Of a stretch of DNA of 64,000 nucleotides, positions 7,483 to 14,329 are shown one piece after another. Where the stretch lies: the NCBI GenBank assembly GCA_944323745.1, contig CALUTQ010000002.1:62001-126000 (forward strand), read 5' to 3'. Source of the DNA: Candidatus Avelusimicrobium pullarium. Lineage in GTDB: Bacteria > Elusimicrobiota > Elusimicrobia > Elusimicrobiales > Elusimicrobiaceae. Both the position numbers and the translations under genes were made by a program. Below the pieces are notes generated by a model, which was not told where the DNA came from, did not search any database, and was given only the letters and a program-made list of their open reading frames with translations. Position 1 is the stretch's first letter. Every line of letters starts with the position of its first letter.

Positions 7483-8676
7483 TTATTTGGTCAAAGCGAC
7501 CAAACCCGGCAATTCTTTGCCTTCCACAAATTCCATACTGGCGCCGCCGCCCGTGGAAACGTGCGAAAACGCTTTCTGGTCAATTTTGCCTTTCTTGAGT
7601 ACGTTGACGCTGTCGCCGCCGCCAATGATGGAAATGGCGCCGTTTTTGGTGGCTTCAATCATCGCATTGGCAATGGCGTAGCTGCCGTGGGCGAAGTTCG
7701 GGAATTCAAACACGCCCATCGGGCCGTTCCAGAAAATCGTTTTGCATTTGAGCAGCTCATCGGCAAACAGCTTTTCGGTTTTGGGACCGATGTCCATACC
7801 TTCCATATCGGCAGGAATGGTGTCGGACACTACGGCTTCAGCCGTTTCCGAAAATTCTTTGGCCAGGCGGAAGTCCACCGGCATCAGCATTTTGACGCCT
7901 TTCGCTTCGGCTTTGGCCATAACCTGTTTGGCTTCTTCAATCTTGGTTTCATCCAAGAGGGACTTGCCCACTTCCATTCCTTTGGCTTTCAGGAAGGTGT
8001 AGGCCATACCGCCGCCGATGATGAGCACATTGACTTTGTCCAAGAGGTTATTAAGCAGCATAATTTTGTCGGATACTTTGGCACCGCCGATGACGGCCGC
8101 AAACGGGCGGGCAGGGTTGTTGAGGGCTTTGCCCAAGAATTCAACTTCTTTCTGCACCAAGAAACCCATAGAGCCCGGCAAAAATTGCGTAATGGCGCTG
8201 GTGGAAGCGTGGGCGCGGTGCACCGTGCCGAAGGCTTCCTGCACGAAGATTTCGCCGTGTTTGGCCAATTGTTTGGCAAATTCGGGGTCGTTCTTTTCTT
8301 CTTCGGGGTGGAAGCGGAGGTTTTCCAAAAGCACGATTTCGCCGTTTTTGGCGCTTTCCACTACTTTATCGGCTTCCGGGCCGACGCAGTCTTTGGCAAA
8401 GTGCACGGGCACGCCGAACACTCTTTGCACTTCTTCGGCCACGGGGGCCAGGCTGAACTCCGGCACTACTTTGCCTTTGGGGCGGCCCAAGTGAGCCATC
8501 AAAACGATGCGGCAGTTATTATCCAGCAGATACTTGATGGTTTTTTCGGTGGCAACGATGCGTTTGTTGTTGTCCACTTTGCCGTCTTTAAGGGGCACGT
8601 TATAGTCCACGCGCACCAATACTTTTTTGTTCTTTACGTCTACGTCCTGCACTTTTTTAATGCTGTCAAAATTCAT
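7483..8676 (-). CDS. pgk: Phosphoglycerate kinase
   Basis: Glycolytic enzyme that transfers the acyl phosphate of 1,3-bisphosphoglycerate to ADP. The 397-residue length is normal. The N-terminal domain carries RVDYNVPLKDG and LMAHLGRPKG, and the C-terminal nucleotide-binding domain carries GGAKVSDK, NGPMGVFE and the final GGGDS and STGGGASME loops. ATG 8676 is chosen because AAGGGG lies upstream; the longer frame to 8724 would add 16 residues without family support. It follows gapA in the same direction with a hairpin between them. Confidence 0.97.
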   Translation of the reverse strand: MNFDSIKKVQDVDVKNKKVLVRVDYNVPLKDGKVDNNKRIVATEKTIKYLLDNNCRIVLMAHLGRPKGKVVPEFSLAPVAEEVQRVFGVPVHFAKDCVGPEADKVVESAKNGEIVLLENLRFHPEEEKNDPEFAKQLAKHGEIFVQEAFGTVHRAHASTSAITQFLPGSMGFLVQKEVEFLGKALNNPARPFAAVIGGAKVSDKIMLLNNLLDKVNVLIIGGGMAYTFLKAKGMEVGKSLLDETKIEEAKQVMAKAEAKGVKMLMPVDFRLAKEFSETAEAVVSDTIPADMEGMDIGPKTEKLFADELLKCKTIFWNGPMGVFEFPNFAHGSYAIANAMIEATKNGAISIIGGGDSVNVLKKGKIDQKAFSHVSTGGGASMEFVEGKELPGLVALTK

Positions 8677-8707
8677 TTCTTTCACCCCTTCTTGCGTTAG
8701 AGAAAAC

Positions 8708-8733
8708 AAAGGCGGCTTTTGCAAGCCGCCTTT
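8708..8733 (-). terminator. Hairpin between gapA and pgk
   Basis: AAAGGCGGCTT (8708-8718) and its exact inverse (8723-8733) around four bases. It probably attenuates or stabilises the gapA transcript before pgk. Confidence 0.7.
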
Positions 8734-8747
8734 GCTTGTAAGACAGA

Positions 8748-9818
<1,071 letters not shown>

Positions 9819-9830
9819 TTACGTGCTTGA

Positions 9831-10556
9831 TTAGTTGCGGCTGTTGACGCGGCCCAAAAGCCTTAAAATTTCCAGATACAGCCACACCAGCGTGACGATG
9901 AGCGAAAAGCCCGCATACCATTCCATATATTTCGGGGCGACTACGCGGCTGGTCAATTGGTCAATAAAATGGAAATCAAGCAAAAAGTTAAACGCAGCTA
10001 CGCCGCAAATAATCACGTTGATACCGATGCTTAAAGCACTGTTGCTGCCGAAATAAGGCACATTGACGCCGAAAAGCATTAACACCAAAGAAACGATGTA
10101 GAACAGCGCTATGGCGCCCGTGGCAGCGGTAACGCCGATAATCAAGCCGTTGGTTACCGGAATAATGCGGCTTTTGTACAAAAACAGCATAATAAAAAAT
10201 ACCAAAAGCGTGATGGCAATGGCCTGCCCCACAATGCCTTGATATTGCGCGGCATACGCAGCCGAGATTACCCCCAGCACCAGTCCTTCCCCAAAGGCGT
10301 ATACCGGGGCCAGCACCGGCGCCATTTTTTTGCTGAAGATGACAATAAAAGCAATGATGGCCGTTACAATAGTAACGGGCCACATATAGGCAGCCATAGT
10401 CTGCGCATTGGCCCAACTGACCATTCCCCCCACCACACACAGAAGCAGCAGGAAAAAGGTTTTGTTGATGGTACCTTGCAGCGTCATAGCAGTTTCGGTA
10501 CGGTTCATCGCCTGTTGATAGGCTTTTTCATTAAAAAGCGGATTTCCGCTGGACAT
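9831..10556 (-). CDS. Bax inhibitor-1 / YccA-like membrane protein
   Basis: A 241-residue inner-membrane protein with about seven hydrophobic helices after a polar N-terminus (MSSGNPLFNEKAYQQAM). It matches the bacterial Bax-inhibitor-1-like family: NKTFFLLLLCVVGGMVSW, then a loop with EGLVLGVISAAY, and a late FHFIDQLTS segment with acidic residues near the last helix. The family forms pH-sensitive ion leak channels; the role in bacteria is unsettled. Stands alone, with an A/G-rich ribosome binding site (GGGAGGAGAAA) before ATG 10556. Confidence 0.88.
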   Translation of the reverse strand: MSSGNPLFNEKAYQQAMNRTETAMTLQGTINKTFFLLLLCVVGGMVSWANAQTMAAYMWPVTIVTAIIAFIVIFSKKMAPVLAPVYAFGEGLVLGVISAAYAAQYQGIVGQAIAITLLVFFIMLFLYKSRIIPVTNGLIIGVTAATGAIALFYIVSLVLMLFGVNVPYFGSNSALSIGINVIICGVAAFNFLLDFHFIDQLTSRVVAPKYMEWYAGFSLIVTLVWLYLEILRLLGRVNSRN

Positions 10557-10616: not shown

Positions 10617-10648
10617 AAAAAACGCGCTGCTTTGCACAGCGCGTTTTT
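10617..10648 (-). terminator. Terminator of the first pseudo-trypsin gene
   Basis: AACGCGCTG (10621-10629) and its exact inverse (10637-10645), flanked by A- and T-runs. Confidence 0.85.
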
Positions 10649-10671: not shown

Positions 10672-11583
10672 TCAGCGGTTTAAAAAATAGTCTTCATTGA
10701 CCATTTTTCTTTTGATTTGCGCCCAGTCTTCGGCGGAGTCTTTTTCAATGTTCTCCTGCAAAAACTGCGCCATTTCCGACGGGAAGAAGTAATAATTCCG
10801 GCCGGCTTTGCGCTGGTCTATAACCACATCGGCGGCGTTGAACCCCAGCAGAAATTCTTCGGTAGACAGTTGCGGAATTAAGCCAAACACGGGGTCGCCG
10901 CTGTCGCCTCTAATTAATTTCCAGCCCAGTCTGAAGCAGCCGCTTTCCGTGCAAACATCGGTTATTTCCACCTCGGCACATACGCGGCTGGGCAGGCAGA
11001 GTCTTTCGCGGTTTACCTGCACGCTGGAAAAAATCGTTTTCATCGTCTGCGGGTCTTTGGCGATAAACAAATTGACGGCGGGTTTGTTTTGAATGGTTTT
11101 TCTCAAATTTTCATTGTTCGGGTCAATGCGAATCAAAAATACTTTGTTTTCTTTGCTGGCGATAATGTGGTCGGCGTCAACCACTTCGCCGTTTATGCGC
11201 ACTTGTTCAATGGTGCGGGTTACTTTCGGGGTTGTTTTTTGAGGAGCGCTGCCAGCGCCGGCATAGTGATAAATTATCCCCCGCTCAGACAGACCGACAC
11301 AAGCCATAGAAGCCAGCAAATAGTGCGAGCTGATACGCACCGCCTGGCAGTCTTTTACCAAAGGGGAATTGTCGGCATAGGCGCTGTTTACGTAGGCGTC
11401 CACCGTTACTTTTATGGGAATAACGCCTTTATTGTGCGCATTGGCGGAATGCTGCATTTGCAGCGGTTTTTGGCTGACGGCGGCCTGCTCCAGCGCTTTG
11501 GTTAGCGCTTCTTGCGACGAGGCAAAAACGGCCGGACAGAGCAAGCTTACTAAAAAAAGAAAAACAGACAATTTGCGGTACAT
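10672..11583 (-). CDS. Secreted trypsin-fold protein with degenerate active site
   Basis: A 303-residue exported protein with a signal peptide of about 21 residues ending AVFA-S. It looks like the S1 (trypsin) fold: a strand and loop HYLLASMACVGL (88-98) sit where LTAAHC is expected, NKVFLIRID (146-154) where DIALLKL is expected, and RGDSGDPVFG (225-234) where GDSGGP is expected. The catalytic serine position is kept, but the histidine is Ala and the aspartate is Asn or lost, so it should not be a normal protease. A tandem paralogue lies immediately upstream. AAGGAG precedes ATG 11583. The function is unknown; a binding or scaffolding role is inference. Confidence 0.65.
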   Translation of the reverse strand: MYRKLSVFLFLVSLLCPAVFASSQEALTKALEQAAVSQKPLQMQHSANAHNKGVIPIKVTVDAYVNSAYADNSPLVKDCQAVRISSHYLLASMACVGLSERGIIYHYAGAGSAPQKTTPKVTRTIEQVRINGEVVDADHIIASKENKVFLIRIDPNNENLRKTIQNKPAVNLFIAKDPQTMKTIFSSVQVNRERLCLPSRVCAEVEITDVCTESGCFRLGWKLIRGDSGDPVFGLIPQLSTEEFLLGFNAADVVIDQRKAGRNYYFFPSEMAQFLQENIEKDSAEDWAQIKRKMVNEDYFLNR

Positions 11584-11650
11584 ATATACTCCTTATGGAA
11601 AGGTTATATAAATAATATATGGATTTAGAAGGATAAAGAAAAGGGACAAA

Positions 11651-11689
11651 AGGCCCACCGTCTTTTGGAAAAAAGACCTAGGCGGGCCT
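11651..11689 (-). terminator. Terminator of the second pseudo-trypsin gene
   Basis: AGGCCC (11651-11656) pairs with GGGCCT (11684-11689), with further inner pairing of GTCTTTT and AAAAGAC. A short T-rich tail follows on the minus strand. Confidence 0.65.
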
Positions 11690-11706
11690 GTCCGTAAAGG
11701 GTGTGC

Positions 11707-12579
11707 TTAGTGGTTGGCTAAAAATTTTTCGTCCACTATTTTGCGTTTCATTTCCTTCCAGGCGGAAGGCGTGAGGGACTGAACACTGTCCTGCAAAAAG
11801 GTTAATTCTTTGCCGGTCAGCAGCGTGTAGCGTTTGCCGGAACGGCCGCTGATGCCTTCGGAGCTGTTGTTAAAACCCAGCAGAAATTCCTGCCCGTTTT
11901 CCGTCACGCTGAAAAGCGGGTCCCCAAAGTCGCCGTTAATAAATTTGCTTTCCAGCGTTAAGGTGCAGCCGTCCTGACTGCAGGCCAAGTCCGGTTGCAC
12001 TTCCGCCGTGGTGCGCCCAATACCGCTGAGGCGTTGGCGGTTGATGTAAAAAGAGTTTTGCAGTTTGGCTACATCTTCGGCCGAGGCATTTGCCGACAAA
12101 ACCATCATATTGGCCTGCGGCATAGCGTGCAGGGTTTTGGCCAATTTGGAGTCTTCGTCATAAGGCACAAATACCAGCATCAGTGCGGTGGAATAATTGC
12201 CCAAGCCTATAATTTGGTCTTTTGAAATGCGGATGCCGTCTAATTTAAAATCAACGTAAGCACCCTTGACCGCCCGTACGCAAGCGCCGGAAACCGCCAG
12301 CCAGTTGTTGTATATTTTAACGGCCGGGCAGCGGTAGGAATATTCATTGGTAAAATGGGCTGTCTTGCCGGACATATCAATATCTTTTATTTCCTTGATA
12401 TATTCCGTTTTGATAGTCAGGGGCAAAACGCCTTCTTCCTTGGAATAATTGGAAGGAAAAGACGTTTTGATTTTTTGCTGTTCCTGCTGCAGGGCTTTAT
12501 CGAGCTTGTCTATGCCGGCGGCCGACAAAGAAGCGGCAGCCAGCAGCAAAAAGCCCATACTGTATAAAAATTTTTTCAT
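11707..12579 (-). CDS. Secreted trypsin-fold protein, catalytic residues lost (paralogue)
   Basis: A 290-residue exported protein with a signal peptide ending near SLSAAG. It is clearly a paralogue of the downstream gene: both have INR/VNRxRL, a two-cysteine loop (ACSQDGC against VCTESGC), EFLLGFN and the ending KRKxVxExFLxN. Here NWLAVSGACVRA replaces the LTAAHC segment (His to Ala) and GDFGDP replaces GDSGGP, so the serine is also lost. A disulfide pattern typical of S1 proteases is kept. ATG 12579 is favoured by GAGAGGAAACC. Each gene has its own terminator. Confidence 0.65.
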   Translation of the reverse strand: MKKFLYSMGFLLLAAASLSAAGIDKLDKALQQEQQKIKTSFPSNYSKEEGVLPLTIKTEYIKEIKDIDMSGKTAHFTNEYSYRCPAVKIYNNWLAVSGACVRAVKGAYVDFKLDGIRISKDQIIGLGNYSTALMLVFVPYDEDSKLAKTLHAMPQANMMVLSANASAEDVAKLQNSFYINRQRLSGIGRTTAEVQPDLACSQDGCTLTLESKFINGDFGDPLFSVTENGQEFLLGFNNSSEGISGRSGKRYTLLTGKELTFLQDSVQSLTPSAWKEMKRKIVDEKFLANH

Positions 12580-12645
12580 ATGGTTTCCTCTCAATGTCTT
12601 TTTACAGTATAGTATCTTTGGGGCTTTTCTTCAAGAGGAAGACAT

Positions 12646-12677
12646 AAAAAAAGCCCTGCTTTGCAGCAGGGCTTTTT
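12646..12677 (-). terminator. Terminator of groESL
   Basis: AGCCCTGCT (12652-12660) and its exact inverse (12665-12673), flanked by A- and T-runs. Confidence 0.9.
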
Positions 12678-12691
12678 GACTGCGGTTTAAA

Positions 12692-14329
12692 TTACATCAT
12701 ACCGCCCATTCCCCCCATACCGGGCATACCGGCAGCACCGTGGGAATGTTCTTTTTCGGGGGCGTCGGCCACCAAGGCTTCGGTGAGCAGCACCGTAGCG
12801 GCGATGGACGCGGCGTTCTCCAGGGCGGTGCGGACCACTTTGGCAGGGTCCACGACGCCGGCTTTGAGCAGGTCGCCATAGGTGCCGGTTTCGGCATCAA
12901 AGCCGTCGGCCTGGCCTTTCATAGACAAAACTTTGTCCACCACGACCGCGCCGTCCAAGCCTGCGTTGACCGCAATTTGGCGCAGCGGCGCCGTTAAGGC
13001 TTTGCGTACGATAGCGATACCGGTTTTGACGTCTTCGTTATCGGCTTTGAGGTTGTCCAAGGCTTTTTGGCTGCGGGCCAAGGCCACACCGCCGCCCGGG
13101 ACGAGGCCTTCTTCCACACCGGCTTTCGTGGCGTTTTTGGCGTCTTCCACTTTGGCTTTTTTGGCTTTCATTTCCGTTTCGGTGGCTGCACCTACGCTGA
13201 TGACGGCTACGCCGCCGGAAAGTTTAGCCAGGCGTTCCTGCAATTTTTCTTTGTCGTAATCGCTGGTGGAGTTTTCAATCTGTTTGCGGATCTGGTCGGC
13301 GCGCTGGGCAATGGCCGTTTTGTCGCCTTTGCCGCTGACGATGGTGGTGTTTTCTTTGTCCACCACAATGCGGTCTGCCTGACCCAGCATCGTAATTTCG
13401 GCTTTATCCAGCTTCATACCGCGTTCTTCGCTGATAACTTCGCCGCCGGTCAGCGTGGCGATATCCTGCAGCATTTCTTTGCGTCTGTCGCCAAAACCGG
13501 GGGCTTTGACCGCGCAGCCTTTAAGCGTGCCGCGCAATTTGTTGACCACCAACGTAGCCAAAGCTTCGCCGTCCACATCTTCGGCCACAATCAGGAACGG
13601 GCGGCCGCTTTGCACGATTTTTTCCAAAATCGGCAGCAGGTCGTTCATAGAAGAAATTTTCTTGTCGGTAATGATGATGTAGGCGTTTTCCAGCACGCAT
13701 TCCATTCTTTCCGGATCGGTTACAAAGTACGGGGAAATGTAGCCGCGGTCAAACTGCATACCTTCCACCACGTCCAGTTTGGTTTCGGCGCTTTTGCCTT
13801 CTTCAACGGTGATGACGCCTTCGTGGCCCACTCTTTCCATAGCTTCGGCAATCAATTCGCCGATGACGCGGTCATTGGAAGAAATGGTGGCGATTTGCGC
13901 CTTTTCTTCTTTAGTTTTGACCGGTTTCTGCATTTTGGAAAGTTCGCCTTTTACGGTTTCTACGGCCATTTCAATGCCTTTTTTGACTAAAGTCGGGTTG
14001 GCACCGGCCGTGATGTTTTTGATGCCTTCGCGCAACAGGGCGTCTGCCAGCACCGTGGCCGTGGTCGTACCGTCGCCGGCTACATCGTTGGTTTTGGCGG
14101 CCACTTCGCGGATGAGCTGTGCGCCCATATTTTCAAACTTGTCTTCCAGTTCAATGTCTTTGGCAATCGTCACGCCGTCGTCAATAATAAGCGGAGAGCC
14201 AAACTTTTTTTCCAGCACTACGCTGCGGCCCTTGGGGCCCAAGGTTACTTTGACGGCATTGGCTACTTTTTCAATGCCTGCTTTCATTTTGGCGCGGGAT
14301 TCGTCGCCGAAAATAATTTGTTTAGCCAT
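12692..14329 (-). CDS. groL: Chaperonin GroEL
   Basis: ATP-driven folding chamber subunit, 545 residues, full length. The N-terminus has [15 protein letters not shown], the ATP-binding [10 protein letters not shown], and the C-terminus ends with the usual Gly-Met-rich tail (MGGMGGMM). Located 20 bases after groES in the same transcript, with a groESL terminator after it. Regulation is through the CIRCE-like operator before groES. Confidence 0.98.

What the first reader, a model, noticed from the sequence alone, without database searches (positions are those of the whole stretch)
10672..12579. Tandem secreted pseudo-trypsins
Two paralogous exported proteins keep the S1-protease scaffold (GDSGDP/GDFGDP loop, cysteine pairs, LLASMAC/LAVSGAC in place of LTAAHC) but have lost the catalytic His in both, Asp in both and Ser in one. 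Loss of the triad in both copies with full-length frames and individual terminators suggests a new non-enzymatic role, such as surface binding or inhibition.
Basis: partly seen in the sequence, partly recalled or inferred. Interest (0 to 1): 0.65.

Follow-up and report, generated by a model that had tools for sequence, protein, structure and literature searches.

The report
Exported dead-protease family beside groEL
Two neighbouring genes of a gut bacterium encode exported proteins that fold like trypsin but have lost the residues needed to cut; they belong to a large, fast-changing, long-kept family of such dead proteases that almost always sits at the same spot next to groEL, so the protein shell was probably reused for binding.

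Summary
Both ORFs are full-length, Sec-exported paralogues (26% identity) with AlphaFold models (pLDDT 85 and 82) that match only S1/chymotrypsin-fold proteases (Z 13.7 and 14.4). Aligned to intact S1 relatives, His57/Asp102/Ser195 read Ala94/Lys147/Ser228 in the 303-aa protein and Ala99/Ala132/Phe218 in the 290-aa protein. The loss is not private to this pair: of 64 distinct relatives none has a complete triad and 63 lack His57, whereas all 28 intact S1 relatives keep H, D and S (the window's genome has two). The inactive proteins form one side of a 100/100 branch, were found only in Elusimicrobiaceae (295 Elusimicrobiota genomes drawn), and nearly always sit between groEL and a BI-1/GAPDH/PGK block, in 1-3 copies. 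They diverge fast (41-70% identity where GAPDH is 93-100%), yet pairwise dN/dS of 0.07-0.35 shows purifying selection. Best reading: a new S1 pseudoprotease family, exported and retained for non-catalytic binding, probably through the remodelled cleft as in UmbA; the partner is unknown. The kind (trypsin-fold pseudoenzyme) is known from MamO, UmbA and SMIPPs; this clade, its fixed locus and its turnover appear undescribed.

The parts
10672..11583 (-). Pseudo-S1 protein 1 (subfamily a), 303 aa, signal peptide; C79/C95 = C42/C58; Ala94 at His57, Lys147 at Asp102, Ser228 at Ser195 (GDSGDP)
11707..12579 (-). Pseudo-S1 protein 2 (subfamily b), 290 aa, signal peptide; C84/C100 = C42/C58; Ala99, Ala132, Phe218 at the triad positions (GDFGDP)
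10618..10648 (-). Intrinsic terminator-like hairpin after the 303-aa gene (13 bp stem, T tract)
11643..11693 (-). Long hairpin after the 290-aa gene, weak T tract
   Evidence: -28.6 kcal/mol, z -4.4
12648..12677 (-). Terminator-like hairpin after groEL, separating it from the pseudo-S1 genes
12606..12634 (-). Possible sigma-70-type promoter of the 290-aa gene (TTGAAG-17-TATACT, 9 of 12; such matches are no more frequent than chance in this region)
12692..14329 (-). groEL, conserved upstream neighbour of the slot
9831..10556 (-). Bax-inhibitor-1-like membrane protein (name from recalled resemblance), conserved downstream neighbour; then GAPDH 8748-9761 and PGK 7483-8724

Best explanation
The two genes encode exported S1-fold pseudoproteases. 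An ancestor shared with the intact S1 proteases of the same bacteria lost His57 and mostly Asp102 and Ser195, then duplicated into subfamilies (a, b, c) at a fixed locus behind groEL. Shown by computation: fold, triad loss across the clade, common descent with intact S1 relatives, vertical persistence at one locus, purifying selection. Inferred: the proteins bind but do not cut. The former substrate cleft, rebuilt around clade-specific residues (Asp at 197, Asn at 213, Pro198), docks a protein or peptide partner, as the dead trypsin domain of UmbA docks UmbB. Copies are partly interchangeable, because genomes keep a+b, a+c, or one alone. The partner, and whether it is a bacterial envelope or secreted protein or a gut-lumen protein, is unknown.
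For: AlphaFold models pLDDT 85.4/82.0, pTM 0.80/0.77; every listed structural match is an S1 protease or a trypsin-like inactive homologue: Foldseek best E 1.4e-6, VIA Z 13.7 over 174 residues and 14.4 over 191 residues. Profiles of two subfamilies independently hit almost only S1 chains in the PDB, at marginal E 0.035-1. Profile a/b against intact relatives: hmmsearch E 1e-5 to 1e-7, hhalign 97.8% over the C42-C58 hairpin. Triad: 0 of 64 complete, 63 of 64 without His57; intact relatives 28 of 28 complete. Tree: pseudo clade separated from intact at 100/100. Synteny groEL-[pseudo]-BI-1/GAPDH/PGK in about 40 genomes of two genera. dN/dS 0.13-0.17 for close subfamily a pairs, 0.07 and 0.2 for b, 0.17-0.35 for c. 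Neighbour GAPDH 93-100% identical where protein 1 is 41-70%. Precedent for bind-not-cut: UmbA (PMC11062931).
Against: No partner, localisation or activity data. Pairwise dN/dS with dS near saturation is a coarse test. Loss of the triad does not exclude an unrelated catalytic activity. Fast divergence and copy turnover also fit weak constraint. The structural models were made without templates from 21 sequences, and Foldseek TM-scores are modest (query-normalised 0.30-0.43, target-normalised up to 0.57).
Confidence: 0.6

Rival explanations
1. Non-catalytic regulators of the intact S1 proteases in the same cell: the dead paralogues bind or activate the two intact enzymes (contig 1, 754786 and 296486), in the way MamO promotes MamE-dependent proteolysis.
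For: The window's genome holds two intact S1 relatives with the same CQAVRI..C hairpin. Regulation in trans by a dead paralogue has precedent in MamO/MamE (PMC4794232).
Against: Intact S1 genes lie elsewhere in the genome and are also present in genomes without a detectable pseudo-S1 (G007, G012, G021, G073, G077), so they do not depend on the dead ones.
Confidence: 0.17
2. Host- or competitor-facing decoys in the gut lumen, mopping up protease inhibitors or other trypsin-binding proteins, in the manner of scabies-mite inactivated protease paralogues (SMIPPs).
For: Gut-associated genomes (chicken, reindeer and similar titles); fast divergence and copy-number change at one locus; SMIPP structures are among the Foldseek hits.
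Against: Secretion past the outer membrane is not shown. The S1 specificity pocket and the 214-216 strand are rebuilt (Asn at 213), so canonical inhibitors might not bind. No sign of dN/dS above 1.
Confidence: 0.12
3. Active enzymes that use a displaced or different catalytic group.
For: Protein 1 keeps Ser at 195 in a GDSGDP loop, and many orthologues have Thr there (13 of 28 in a/b).
Against: Position 195 ranges over S, T, A, F, Y and G, and 57 over A, T, Y, M, S, V, P, N, E; no invariant His, Asp or Ser replaces them among the conserved columns.
Confidence: 0.05
4. Decaying pseudogenes or relaxed leftovers without function.
For: High divergence; several genomes lack detectable copies, and one has an empty slot (G023).
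Against: Full-length frames in nearly all of 64 sequences; dN/dS 0.07-0.35; invariant cysteines, near-invariant P198, N213 and D197; retention at one locus across two genera.
Confidence: 0.04

Closest known systems
Intact S1 proteases of the same genus (for example L003, L088), Pfam PF00089
   Same: Same fold, same CQAVRI-x9-C hairpin, signal peptide, found in the same genomes
   Different: Intact H/D/S in 28 of 28, found elsewhere in the genome, over the Pfam trypsin cut-off; lack the N-terminal helix and the D197/P198/N213 signature
UmbA trypsin-like domain of Streptomyces umbrella particles (8w20; PMC11062931)
   Same: Exported bacterial trypsin-fold domain without a full triad, not catalytic; a high Foldseek hit; used to bind a partner in its cleft
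   Different: Carries lectin domains and works with UmbB/UmbC; no lectin domain or umb genes here
MamO of magnetotactic bacteria (PMC4794232)
   Same: Bacterial trypsin-like pseudoprotease repurposed after duplication, intact paralogue in the same cell
   Different: HtrA-derived, fused to a TauE transporter, binds metal by a surface di-histidine; no transporter domain here, metal site not tested
SMIPP-S, scabies-mite inactivated S1 paralogues (3h7o, 3h7t)
   Same: Multi-copy, fast-diverging, secreted inactive S1 paralogues; among the Foldseek hits
   Different: Animal chymotrypsin lineage acting on host complement (recalled); no such target shown here
V8/Esp glutamyl endopeptidases (S1B) and YdgD
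   Same: Among the best structural matches among bacterial proteases (Z about 13); similar C-terminal helix
   Different: Active enzymes or putative ones, little sequence identity (11-18%)

Membership tests
Peptidase family S1 as active enzymes | Chymotrypsin double-barrel fold | tested here: met
   VIA Z 13.7 and 14.4, all rows S1
Peptidase family S1 as active enzymes | His57-Asp102-Ser195 triad | tested here: not met
   A/K/S and A/A/F; 0 of 64 family members complete
Peptidase family S1 as active enzymes | Match to the trypsin profile over the curated cut-off | tested here: not met
   No Pfam hit for either; intact relatives do hit
S1-derived pseudoproteases | Descent from S1 with catalytic residues lost | tested here: met
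   Fold, hairpin spacing, profile matches to intact relatives, tree
S1-derived pseudoproteases | Retained under selection rather than decaying | tested here: met
   Pairwise dN/dS 0.07-0.35, open frames, fixed locus
S1-derived pseudoproteases | No proteolytic activity | not testable with these tools
   Needs purified protein
UmbA | Trypsin-like domain followed by lectin domain(s), with umbB/umbC genes | tested here: not met
   All 303/290 aa are taken by signal, N-terminal helix, barrel and a short C-terminal helical tail; neighbours are groEL and BI-1/GAPDH/PGK
MamO | HtrA-type protease domain fused to a TauE transporter | tested here: not met
   No membrane domain after the barrel
MamO | Surface di-histidine metal site | not tested
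SMIPP-S | Inhibition of host complement | not testable with these tools
   Needs binding assays

The most novel reading that the evidence does not exclude
The groEL-BI-1 slot is a dedicated diversifying locus: an S1 protease became a family of exported dead proteases that bind gut or competitor proteins, in some lineages decayed further into small half-barrel proteins, and was replaced or lost elsewhere.
Probability: 0.15. Interest if true: 0.7.

Novelty: new variant of a known kind. Interest (0 to 1): 0.48.

Why it matters
Bacterial trypsin-fold pseudoenzymes with a worked-out role are few (MamO and UmbA were the ones found here). This is a clade of at least 64 sequences with intact relatives in the same genomes, intermediate states (Tyr-Asp-Ser in a sister genus) and a fixed locus. 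That makes it a natural series for asking how a protease turns into a binder, and it gives a function to look for in proteins that no Pfam or NCBIfam profile recognises.

Tried and rejected
Single-sequence searches of Pfam, NCBIfam, PADLOC and PDB gave nothing usable. Phage, plasmid and viral-contig searches found no relative, which argues against a mobile or phage origin. An obligate heterodimer of the two window proteins was considered and set aside: many genomes keep only one subfamily, and the order of a and c differs (G011, G019, G079 have a before c). Reading L007:437-1294 (AVSAHC) as an active member was rejected: Ser at 102 and Phe at 195. The slot proteins of genomes without detectable pseudo-S1 were compared with the family by hhalign; the best of them reached 93%, mostly over the signal and N-terminal helix, so kinship is not claimed.

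Full report
Observation. The two ORFs are real, complete and on the minus strand between groEL (12692-14329) and a BI-1-like gene (9831-10556). They are paralogues of 303 and 290 aa (26% identity, E 6e-26) with Sec-type signal sequences (read by eye). Strong hairpins end groEL, the 290-aa gene and the 303-aa gene separately, so they need not form one operon.

Fold. No Pfam, NCBIfam or PADLOC profile reached significance and no PDB sequence matched them alone. Family profiles hit the PDB at marginal E-values, but almost every hit was an S1 protease, for two subfamilies independently. AlphaFold models from an alignment of 21 relatives reached pLDDT 85.4/82.0 and pTM 0.80/0.77. Foldseek and VIA matches were S1 proteases or inactive trypsin-like homologues throughout (Z 13.7, rmsd 2.9, 174 residues for protein 1; Z 14.4, rmsd 3.5, 191 residues for protein 2). 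Foldseek hits included two naturally inactive, repurposed cases: UmbA (8w20) and SMIPP-S (3h7o, 3h7t).

Triad. I found a second set of proteins, 299-342 aa apart from one of 231 aa, in most genomes of the genus examined and in a related genus (L094, probably Elusimicrobium minutum, judged from the chromosome size of 1,643,562 bp), with CQAVRL..NWFLTAAHC, DVALI and GNSGGG motifs and Pfam trypsin matches. Aligning 28 of these with 64 pseudo members gives H, D and S in 28 of 28 intact proteins. Among the pseudo members none has all three; two have D and S (Tyr at 57), eleven have one, 51 have none, and 63 of 64 lack His57. The C42-C58 spacing is 17 in 28 of 28 a/b members, 32 of 33 c members and 28 of 28 intact relatives. 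The pseudo clade has its own signature: Asp at 197, Pro at 198 and Asn at 213, where intact relatives have Gly/Ser, Gly/Ala and Val.

Distribution and descent. In 295 Elusimicrobiota genomes, pseudo members were found only in two genera of one family (the third genus with a match, g13, has the intact type); titles of the fetched records name Elusimicrobiales, including Candidatus Avelusimicrobium. The tree separates pseudo from intact with 100/100 support. Inside it the 303-aa protein falls in subfamily a and the 290-aa protein in a small group b that lies with subfamily c (87/64). The window pair therefore goes back to an old duplication, not a recent tandem copy.

Locus. In about 40 genomes the pseudo genes sit directly behind groEL and before BI-1/GAPDH/PGK, including three genomes of the sister genus. 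Contents are a, b, c, b+a, c+a, a+c, c+c or c+c+a. Exceptions: G091 and G123 (off the slot) and a second copy in G004. Neighbouring GAPDH is 93-100% identical across genomes in which protein 1 is 41-70% identical, so the locus diverges fast. Pairwise NG86 dN/dS is 0.07-0.35 for the closest pairs with measurable dS (intact relatives 0.07-0.14), that is, purifying selection overall, weakest in c.

Mechanism. Exported, long retained, without a triad and with a rebuilt cleft, the proteins most likely bind (inference). UmbA is the nearest worked-out bacterial case: a trypsin domain without a full triad, no detected activity, that holds the N-terminus of UmbB in its cleft (PMC11062931). MamO shows two further uses of a dead trypsin fold, activating a partner protease and binding metal (PMC4794232). 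Which of these applies is not decided: the partner is unknown. The regulator rival is weakened because intact S1 genes occur without the pseudo ones; the decoy rival lacks evidence of secretion beyond the periplasm.

Novelty. Trypsin-fold pseudoenzymes are a known kind. The library search found two papers that mention Avelusimicrobium, and I saw none describing this family, though the library is partial and I did not read those two. I rate it a new variant of a known kind.

Noticed in passing
L157:2300-2989, L158:369-1058, L159:390-1082, L160:2161-2853, L163:384-1085, L165:399-3823, L166:5592-6284, L167:428-1153, L098:2333-4896: Genomes without detectable pseudo-S1 have other exported 200-380 aa proteins in the same groEL-BI-1 slot; they keep a C-x-A-[ILV]-L...C hairpin (for example CSALLLNAKGTLAIKKDC) and may be further-degraded half-S1 proteins. 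hhalign support is weak.
   Followed up: partly
L007:437-1294 (same gene as L048:4937-5794): One subfamily b protein carries AVSAHC with His at 57, but Ser at 102 and Phe at 195: a lone or regained histidine.
   Followed up: yes
L079, L080 (genomes G123, G091, sister genus): Two pseudo members outside the groEL slot keep Asp102 and Ser195 and have Tyr at 57, suggesting that His was lost first.
   Followed up: partly
L154/L156 (G023): groEL is followed directly by BI-1: an empty slot.
   Followed up: no
L003:1372-2382 and L001:1345-2334 (window's own genome): Two intact exported S1 proteases (H/D/S present) of the same lineage, natural candidates for interaction tests.
   Followed up: partly
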